From IMG/VR virus record IMGVR_UViG_3300045918_000146, positions 1 to 64,000 of that record: DNA of 64,000 nucleotides; one strand, 5' to 3'. The notes under the pieces are model-generated. The model was given only the letters and a program-made list of their open reading frames with translations, did no database searches and had not been told where the DNA came from. Positions 63,186 to 64,000 of the stretch are shown here, piece by piece. This stretch comes from a virus. How positions within the stretch are numbered: the first letter of the stretch is position 1; the number at the start of each line of letters is the position of its first letter. The position numbers were made by a program, and so were the translations under genes.

Positions 63186-63340
63186 TCGTCGTTAATCCTT
63201 TAATGCTAATATATATTATTTACTCGAAAGAGCAGAAAGCCCAAATAATCTTTAGTCCTTGGGATGAATGCGACAGGTTTTTTAATCAAATTATCTCACA
63301 ATTGAATTGTTAACCATTTGAGTTGATTATTACGGTAACC

Positions 63341-63539
63341 AGTAGTAATATAATACTACTTAGGGATAGTTACAGCAATTAAAAACCTACTCAAATGCTA
63401 TAGACGGTAGATAGAGATATCGTGTAATCTACCAATAGAATAGCTATTGTTAGCCAGAAGAACTAGCGGTGTGGGTGACTCAAACCCAATAGTGTTCAGG
63501 CGAAAACTGAACTATAGCGGCAGGGATGATGAAAGCCGC
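63341..63539. ncRNA. Hairpin-rich region, candidate structured RNA or origin-like element
   Basis: Six perfect hairpins lie in 199 bases with no intact gene. AGTAGTA/TACTACT (63341-63360, 7 bp). GGTAGAT/ATCTACC (63406-63433, 7 bp). CAATAG/CTATTG (63433-63449, 6 bp). TGGGT/ACCCA (63472-63488, 5 bp, 7-base loop). GTTCAG/CTGAAC (63494-63512, 6 bp, 7-base loop). GCGGC/GCCGC (63517-63539, 5 bp). Strand is undecided. The surrounding 63186-63600 holds no other feature I can support. Confidence 0.45.
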
Positions 63540-63614
63540 AAGAAACAATAATTAAAACATTTACCCTAACCTAACCTATCCTATCCCGCACATTATGATT
63601 TAGAAAGGCCTACT

Positions 63615-63895
63615 ATGTTTCAATGGGTTAAAAAACTTATACCATCAAAGAGATCAAAGAGATCAAAGAGATCAAAGAGATCAACGAGTTAGCGTTAGGC
63701 AAAAACGAGATACACGTAATTAAACTTAAAAGTAATAACATGCCAAACAGCACATGGCAGGAACATGCAACCGATGTTAAAAATATGTTCCAACTATTAC
63801 TGTTGTCATAACAAATAATAGTTATTAGCGAAGATGTGGAATTATCAACAATTAAGAAAGATAAGTTACCAGGTAATTTACATCCAATTGGTTAA
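63615..63895 (+). pseudogene. Decayed small gene with basic/KEI repeat region
   Basis: ATG at 63615 after AGAAAGG reads 25 codons (MFQWVKKLIPSKRSKRSKRS ...) to TAG. In the -1 frame the same DNA reads repeated IKE, then LALGKNEIHVIKLKSNN up to TAA at 63808-63810, and the same frame resumes as QIIVISEDVELSTIKKDKL to TAA at 63895. One shift at the AAAAAA run (63630-63635) plus one stop would restore about 90 residues. The 25-codon frame could be a real short basic peptide. Confidence 0.45.
63644..63688 (+). repeat. Tandem 9-bp repeat ATCAAAGAG
   Basis: Four perfect head-to-tail copies of ATCAAAGAG and a fifth with one change (ATCAACGAG). Period nine, as for the GATCTAGAA repeat at the other end of the window. 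Confidence 0.9.
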
Positions 63896-63903
63896 TTAAT
63901 GTA

Positions 63904-63932
63904 TTGACACACAGACATTATTAATGTACTAT
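63904..63932 (+). promoter_or_regulatory. Sigma70-like promoter with hairpin at the transcript start
   Basis: TTGACA, 17 bases, TACTAT. The expected transcript would begin near 63939, exactly at a 7-bp hairpin (ACTTAAA/TTTAAGT, 63939-63959), which would protect the 5' end or attenuate. The controlled gene lies beyond the right edge. Confidence 0.65.
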
Positions 63933-64000
63933 TAATACACTTAAACAACAGCTTTAAGTTTTAAGAGTGGTTACAGCAACAAATACATATTAGAGTCAGC

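What the first reader, a model, noticed from the sequence alone, without database searches (positions are those of the whole stretch)
63341..63539. Six-hairpin noncoding region upstream of the topoisomerase operon
Six perfect stems of 5-7 bp lie within 200 bases, most separated by short linkers and two with 7-base loops. No intact gene explains them. Possible roles are a stable phage RNA, a replication origin or packaging element, or a long leader. The position between a divergent operon and a promoter-bearing region fits an origin or a regulatory RNA.
Basis: partly seen in the sequence, partly recalled or inferred. Interest (0 to 1): 0.7.

Follow-up and report, generated by a model that had tools for sequence, protein, structure and literature searches.

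The report
Y-RNA-like RNAs beside phage Ro60 gene
The hairpin-rich stretch is the first of four small structured RNA genes that a phage keeps near its own version of the Ro60 RNA-binding protein, and they belong to a large, apparently unrecognised family of Y-RNA-like phage RNAs, many of which copy parts of tRNAs and some of which resemble the unexplained 'Class I' RNAs of social amoebae.

Summary
The six hairpins are real. Five lie inside one structured + strand unit, u1 (63363-63587): a 7-bp terminal stem (P1, GGGATAG/CTATCCC), one spacer base, the motif TACAGCAA, a variable interior, and G after P1'. Three more units follow (63964-64039, 64050-64152, 64162-64224). Downstream lies a DUF2828/DUF7788 gene (about 65381-66793) whose AlphaFold model has Ro60/Rsr/TROVE structures as its top eight PDB hits. 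In 80 IMG/VR loci around homologous genes, 122 of 221 motif sites on the gene strand have an exact 7-bp partner downstream, 120 followed by G; controls give 1 of 75 and 1 of 42. A covariance model of short units matches 12 of 13 phage records with this protein and 0 of 11 without. Units often carry tRNA parts (anticodon arms, T-arms, permuted tRNA-like folds; two weakly hit Rfam YrlA) or sit inside tRNA genes. Short ones match Rfam Dictyostelium Class I RNA just below threshold. Best reading: Y-RNA-like partner RNAs of a phage Ro60-like protein. 'Stable phage RNA' was right; origin or packaging has no support. Expression, binding and function are inferred, not shown.

The parts
63363..63587 (+). 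unit u1: Y-RNA-like noncoding RNA (the finding), about 225 nt
   Evidence: P1 + motif + following G as in relatives; P1 closes the minimum-free-energy fold
63363..63369 (+). P1 5' strand GGGATAG
   Evidence: exact complement at 63581-63587
63371..63378 (+). conserved motif TACAGCAA, one base after P1
   Evidence: invariant T, CAGCA in 49 aligned units
63406..63433 (+). internal hairpin, 7 bp
63433..63449 (+). internal hairpin, 6 bp
63472..63488 (+). internal hairpin, 5 bp, 7-nt loop GACTCAA
63494..63512 (+). internal hairpin, 6 bp, 7-nt loop GCGAAAA
63517..63539 (+). hairpin GCGGC/GCCGC; tentative stem S1 of a 3' pseudoknot
   Evidence: counterpart in long relatives
63522..63567 (+). tentative pseudoknot stem S2: AGGG 63522-63525 with CCCT 63564-63567 (4 bp)
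   Evidence: coordinates; own case weak, relatives stronger
63581..63587 (+). P1 3' strand CTATCCC, followed by G 63588
63904..63932 (+). promoter-like TTGACA-17-TACTAT upstream of u2
   Evidence: 10 of 12 matches; number of such sites in the region no more than chance
63964..64000 (+). unit u2, continues past the window to 64039; u3 (64050-64152), u4 (64162-64224) and the Ro60-like gene (65381-66793) follow outside the window
   Evidence: model R1: u2 E 2e-5, u4 E 8e-4; gene

Best explanation
The region encodes a small structured noncoding RNA, one of four in a row, that works like a Y RNA. Its paired ends (P1) and the adjacent CAGCAA motif probably form a docking site for the phage's Ro60-like ring protein, while the variable interior is the working domain. 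In relatives that domain is often a tRNA part (anticodon arm, T-arm, or a permuted tRNA with closed acceptor stem), so the likely job is to gate or tether the Ro60-like protein, or to offer it or other enzymes a tRNA look-alike, within the phage's RNA repair and tRNA metabolism. Shown computationally: the P1-motif architecture, its recurrence, its co-occurrence with the protein, the Ro60 fold, and tRNA parts in relatives. Inferred: transcription here, protein binding, and function.
For: Unbiased helix test: 122/221 motif sites with an exact 7-bp partner versus 1/75 and 1/42 in controls, 3.9 on average with swapped strands. Strand bias 125:2 and presence in 70 of 80 loci. Protein: DUF2828/DUF7788; top eight PDB fold hits are Ro60/Rsr/TROVE. 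Model R1 in 12 of 13 records with the protein, 0 of 11 without; 0 hits below 0.01 in 324 kb of controls. A record found only by the tRNA-embedded DNA pattern also encodes the protein. Own u2 and u4 match R1. Anticodon-arm and T-arm enrichment. Two permuted-tRNA-like units are the best YrlA hits. A P100-like Listeria phage, CKA15, makes abundant transcripts upstream of an Rsr-like gene (PMC12282133); P100 has a unit 174 nt upstream of its gene.
Against: No expression or binding data for this phage. u1 itself reaches only E 0.72 with R1, over part of the model, and u3 0.68. u1 shows no tRNA part. No Rfam match in the own region. The gene is 1.8 kb from u1 with small ORFs between. The antisense folds better.
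Confidence: 0.7

Rival explanations
1. The P1-CAGCAA element is a mini-intron or processing element: inside tRNAs it is cut out and the halves are joined by phage RNA ligase; free-standing units are permuted versions that yield circular RNAs or permuted tRNAs.
For: Inserts in tRNA genes of KVP40, 1.081.O, S13, phiAS5 and others; removing some leaves a perfect anticodon stem, e.g. KVP40 CG+TGC/GCACG; RNA ligase in the neighbourhood.
Against: Shuffled flanks restore stems as well under the same search freedom, so the test is inconclusive. Many units have no exons resembling a tRNA. The link with a Ro60-like protein is not predicted.
Confidence: 0.15
2. Cis-acting leader: the element in the mRNA lets the Ro60-like protein bind and control its own operon; no separate RNA is made.
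For: Several units end 20-30 nt before the gene's start codon.
Against: Up to several units per locus, many kilobases away among tRNAs, and inside tRNA genes; abundant separate transcripts in CKA15.
Confidence: 0.08
3. u1 alone is a decayed or chance unit; only u2 and u4 are real.
For: u1 is weak with R1.
Against: Exact P1 at the fixed offset, motif, following G, same array; R1 models only short units.
Confidence: 0.05
4. Replication origin or packaging element.
For: Intergenic position and hairpins only.
Against: Relatives' pattern fits a transcribed RNA near a Ro60-like gene and tRNAs. Not tested directly.
Confidence: 0.02

Closest known systems
Bacterial Y RNAs, Rfam YrlA (RF02553), partners of Rsr/Ro60
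   Same: Ends form a stem; Ro60-like gene nearby; some relatives have a tRNA-like domain and hit YrlA at E 1e-4 and 3e-4
   Different: Hits are below the gathering score; own units do not match; constant CAGCAA motif; many interiors are only an anticodon arm; tRNA-embedded forms
Dictyostelid Class I RNAs (Rfam RF01414; PMC7919456)
   Same: About 60 nt in the short class, end stem with covariation, 5' G, CAGCAA-type motif beside the 5' strand, variable interior
   Different: Phage, not amoeba; best score 39.6 against a threshold of 41.5; u1 is about 225 nt; known protein partner of Class I RNA is the RRM protein Rnp1A
Putative Y RNAs of Listeria phage CKA15 (PMC12282133)
   Same: Abundant transcripts within 2 kb upstream of an Rsr-like gene, same direction; related P100 has a unit there
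   Different: No motif or family was defined in the passages read; coordinates were not compared here
T4 stable RNAs rnaC and rnaD
   Same: Small stable phage RNAs beside tRNAs
   Different: No P1-CAGCAA element; T4 lacks the protein

Membership tests
Y RNA (as a kind) | 5' and 3' ends pair in a stem | tested here: met
   exact 7-bp P1 in u1-u4; helix test in relatives
Y RNA (as a kind) | Ro60-like protein encoded in the same genome | tested here: met
Y RNA (as a kind) | bound by the Ro60-like protein | not testable with these tools
   needs EMSA or CLIP
YrlA (RF02553) | tRNA-like domain | tested here: inconclusive
   present in several relatives, not recognised in u1-u4
YrlA (RF02553) | match at the Rfam gathering score | tested here: not met
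   own region none; relatives 37.7 and 35.9 bits against 69
Dictyostelid Class I RNA (RF01414) | end stem plus conserved motif beside its 5' strand | tested here: met
   architecture and motif as in PMC7919456; the full 11-nt motif was not scored in u1
Dictyostelid Class I RNA (RF01414) | match at the Rfam gathering score | tested here: not met
   best 39.6 against 41.5; own region none
Ro60 / TROVE protein | HEAT-like ring plus vWA fold | tested here: met
   Foldseek top eight hits, E 2.5e-8 to 2.6e-6
Ro60 / TROVE protein | Pfam TROVE or PDB sequence match | tested here: not met
   Pfam gives DUF2828 and DUF7788 only; no Ro60 by sequence profile
tRNA intron / permuted tRNA | removal of the element restores a tRNA | tested here: inconclusive
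   shuffled controls score as well
Replication origin / packaging site | origin activity or genome terminus | not tested
   needs two-dimensional gels or end mapping

The most novel reading that the evidence does not exclude
The phage RNAs and the dictyostelid Class I RNAs are one RNA family, ancient or transferred: the Y RNAs of DUF2828-type Ro60-like proteins. That would give Class I RNAs, reported as unique to social amoebae, a candidate protein partner and relatives in phages that carry tRNA mimics.
Probability: 0.3. Interest if true: 0.9.

Novelty: new variant of a known kind. Interest (0 to 1): 0.74.

Why it matters
It defines a large phage RNA family by a simple rule (7-bp end stem, one base, T(T/A)CAGCAA, G after the stem) and ties it to a Ro60-like protein with relatives in 682 of 50,697 phage records, including KVP40, P100 and S13, and it gives a reason for some of KVP40's 'pseudo' tRNAs. 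The tRNA-like interiors make a role in tRNA repair, decoy or quality control directly testable, and the resemblance to Class I RNAs offers a lead on an amoeba RNA class whose mechanism is unsettled.

Tried and rejected
Rfam on the window at gathering score: nothing. ARAGORN: no tRNA. Early lead that 63231-63271 is an IS605 end or omega-RNA: 41-bp match to Helicobacter phage IS605, but no OrfB_IS605 domain (PF01385) match in the record; left aside. Exact-DNA and topoisomerase peptide searches for close relatives: none. Phage X1, the closest topoisomerase relative, has neither protein nor RNA. Mini-intron idea: kept as a rival after an inconclusive test. T4 rnaC/rnaD: not members. Covariation counts on A3, A5 and A6 are partly circular, because rows were chosen or laid out by pairing; one search is the unbiased test. 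An automatic pseudoknot finder did not separate real from shuffled well.

Full report
Observation. The six stems exist where reported. Hairpin density is in the top 2.5% of 199-nt windows, and the + strand folds better than shuffles, though the antisense of 63300-63560 folds better still. Energy alone would not settle the matter. Neither Rfam at gathering score nor ARAGORN finds anything in the window.

What it is. Between the divergent topoisomerase gene and small + strand ORFs, the motif T(T/A)CAGCA followed by an A-rich stretch occurs four times. Each copy lies one base 3' of a 7-mer whose exact reverse complement follows downstream: GGGATAG 63363-63369 / 63581-63587 (u1, the finding), AGAGTGG 63964-63970 / 64033-64039 (u2), AGGATAG 64050-64056 / 64146-64152 (u3), AGGTTGC 64162-64168 / 64218-64224 (u4). 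Five of the six reported hairpins lie inside u1; 63341-63360 lies just upstream.

The neighbour. About 1.1 kb after u4 is a 470-aa protein with Pfam DUF2828 and DUF7788. Its AlphaFold model (mean pLDDT 82.8) has eight PDB hits below E 0.001, all Ro60, Rsr or TROVE structures. Sequence profiles do not show this. tblastn finds relatives in 682 of 50,697 phage records.

Relatives. Eighty IMG/VR loci around related genes were fetched. Searching for a motif beside a helix gave 125 units on the gene strand, 2 on the opposite strand and 2 in reversed sequence; 70 of 80 loci have at least one. The cleanest test takes all 221 A-rich motif sites, fixes the seven bases ending one base before the motif, and asks for an exact partner within 300 nt: 122 have one, 120 followed by G. 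Controls: 1/75 opposite strand, 1/42 reversed, and 3.9 on average (largest 9) when helix strands are swapped among sites. Many units lie 20-400 nt upstream of the gene.

Model test. A covariance model, R1, of 28 short units from IMG/VR finds own u2 (E 2e-5) and u4 (8e-4), but u1 and u3 only at about 0.7. It finds nothing below 0.01 in 324 kb of control loci. In records not used for training it matches 12 with the protein (KVP40, 1.081.O, S13, phiAS5, BF, XbC2, Munch, five IMG/VR records) and none of 11 without it, T4 and X1 included. Listeria P100 has the protein but no R1 match at 0.01; it does have a unit, AGGAAGC-A-CACAGCAA...GCTTCCT-G, 174 nt upstream of the gene. Most of the 12 records were reached through the protein, so they test the RNA given the protein. 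One was reached without it: a DNA pattern for the tRNA-embedded form over 2.9 million contigs gave 34 hits, of which one (L035) sits in a real tRNA, and that record encodes the protein.

Interiors. Of 34 distinct short units, 20 contain a hairpin with a 7-nt loop, U33 and purine 37, like an anticodon arm; shuffles give 2.2%. Of 72 longer units, 14 contain a T-arm; 0.15 expected. Some hold D-arm, T-arm and acceptor stem in permuted order (L108:1212-1328, L111:770-881, L131:9618-9725), and two of these are the best YrlA hits, full length, E 1e-4 and 3e-4, below the family threshold. The same element, closed by a GAYA-type tetraloop, lies inside tRNA genes of KVP40, 1.081.O, S13, phiAS5 and others, some annotated as pseudogenes. 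The longest units, which u1 resembles, appear to end in a pseudoknot with an A-rich linker; for u1 this rests on S1 and a 4-bp S2, on an alignment laid out by hand, and is tentative.

Amoeba link. Short units match Rfam Dicty_Class_I_RNA at E 4.6e-4, 0.0088, 0.019 and 0.029; all four hits to that family in six loci fall on short units. The alignment shares the 5' G, the stem, the CAGCAA motif and the 3' CUG. Kjellin et al. (PMC7919456) describe Class I RNAs as about 60 nt, with a 6-bp end stem that covaries, an 11-nt motif beside its 5' strand and a variable rest, found only in dictyostelids. A-rich composition and a short motif leave room for convergence; homology is not shown.

Mechanism. 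Best supported: partner RNAs of a Ro60-like ring protein. P1 and CAGCAA are the constant part, hence the probable docking site; interiors are the variable working part. [quoted passage not shown] For jumbo phages a ROT/TROVE protein has been placed with RNA repair (PMC7824862). This phage carries an RNA ligase in the neighbourhood. Indirect support for expression comes from Listeria phage CKA15, where abundant transcripts lie within 2 kb upstream of an Rsr-like gene in the same direction and were proposed as possible Y RNAs (PMC12282133); coordinates were not compared.

Rivals. A spliced mini-intron is attractive for the embedded form, but shuffled flanks restore stems as well under the same search freedom, so this stays open. 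A cis-acting leader, a decayed u1, and an origin are less likely.

Verdict. The finding is real and part of a structured RNA array. Membership in YrlA or Class I RNA is not claimed, because the defining scores are not met. It works most like a Y RNA, and is classed as a new variant of a known kind.

Noticed in passing
63231-63271: Hairpin-like stretch with a 41-bp, 90% match to the left end of IS605 in Helicobacter phages (E 7e-5); no OrfB_IS605 (TnpB) domain match in the record.
   Followed up: partly
63644-63688: Tandem 9-base repeat ATCAAAGAG, four to five copies, between u1 and u2.
   Followed up: no
63564-63587: CCTAA/CCTAT repeats run into P1', so P1 of u1 has a second, G-U-containing partner register at 63576-63582.
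   Followed up: partly
63300-63560, - strand: The antisense folds markedly better than shuffles (z -5.9), better than the sense strand; cause unknown.
   Followed up: no
L007:7140-7310 (Cronobacter phage S13): A tRNA 3' half precedes its 5' half inside a long helix with the CAGCAA motif: looks like a permuted tRNA.
   Followed up: partly
L012:11003-11120 (KVP40) and L013:13812-13920 (1.081.O): Permuted tRNA-like RNAs with the acceptor closed by a TTGGTA loop, between tRNA-Gln and tRNA-Thr.
   Followed up: partly
L004:8864-9874 (record 71864-72874): RNA ligase with PHA02142 OB-fold domain in the neighbourhood of the Ro60-like gene.
   Followed up: no
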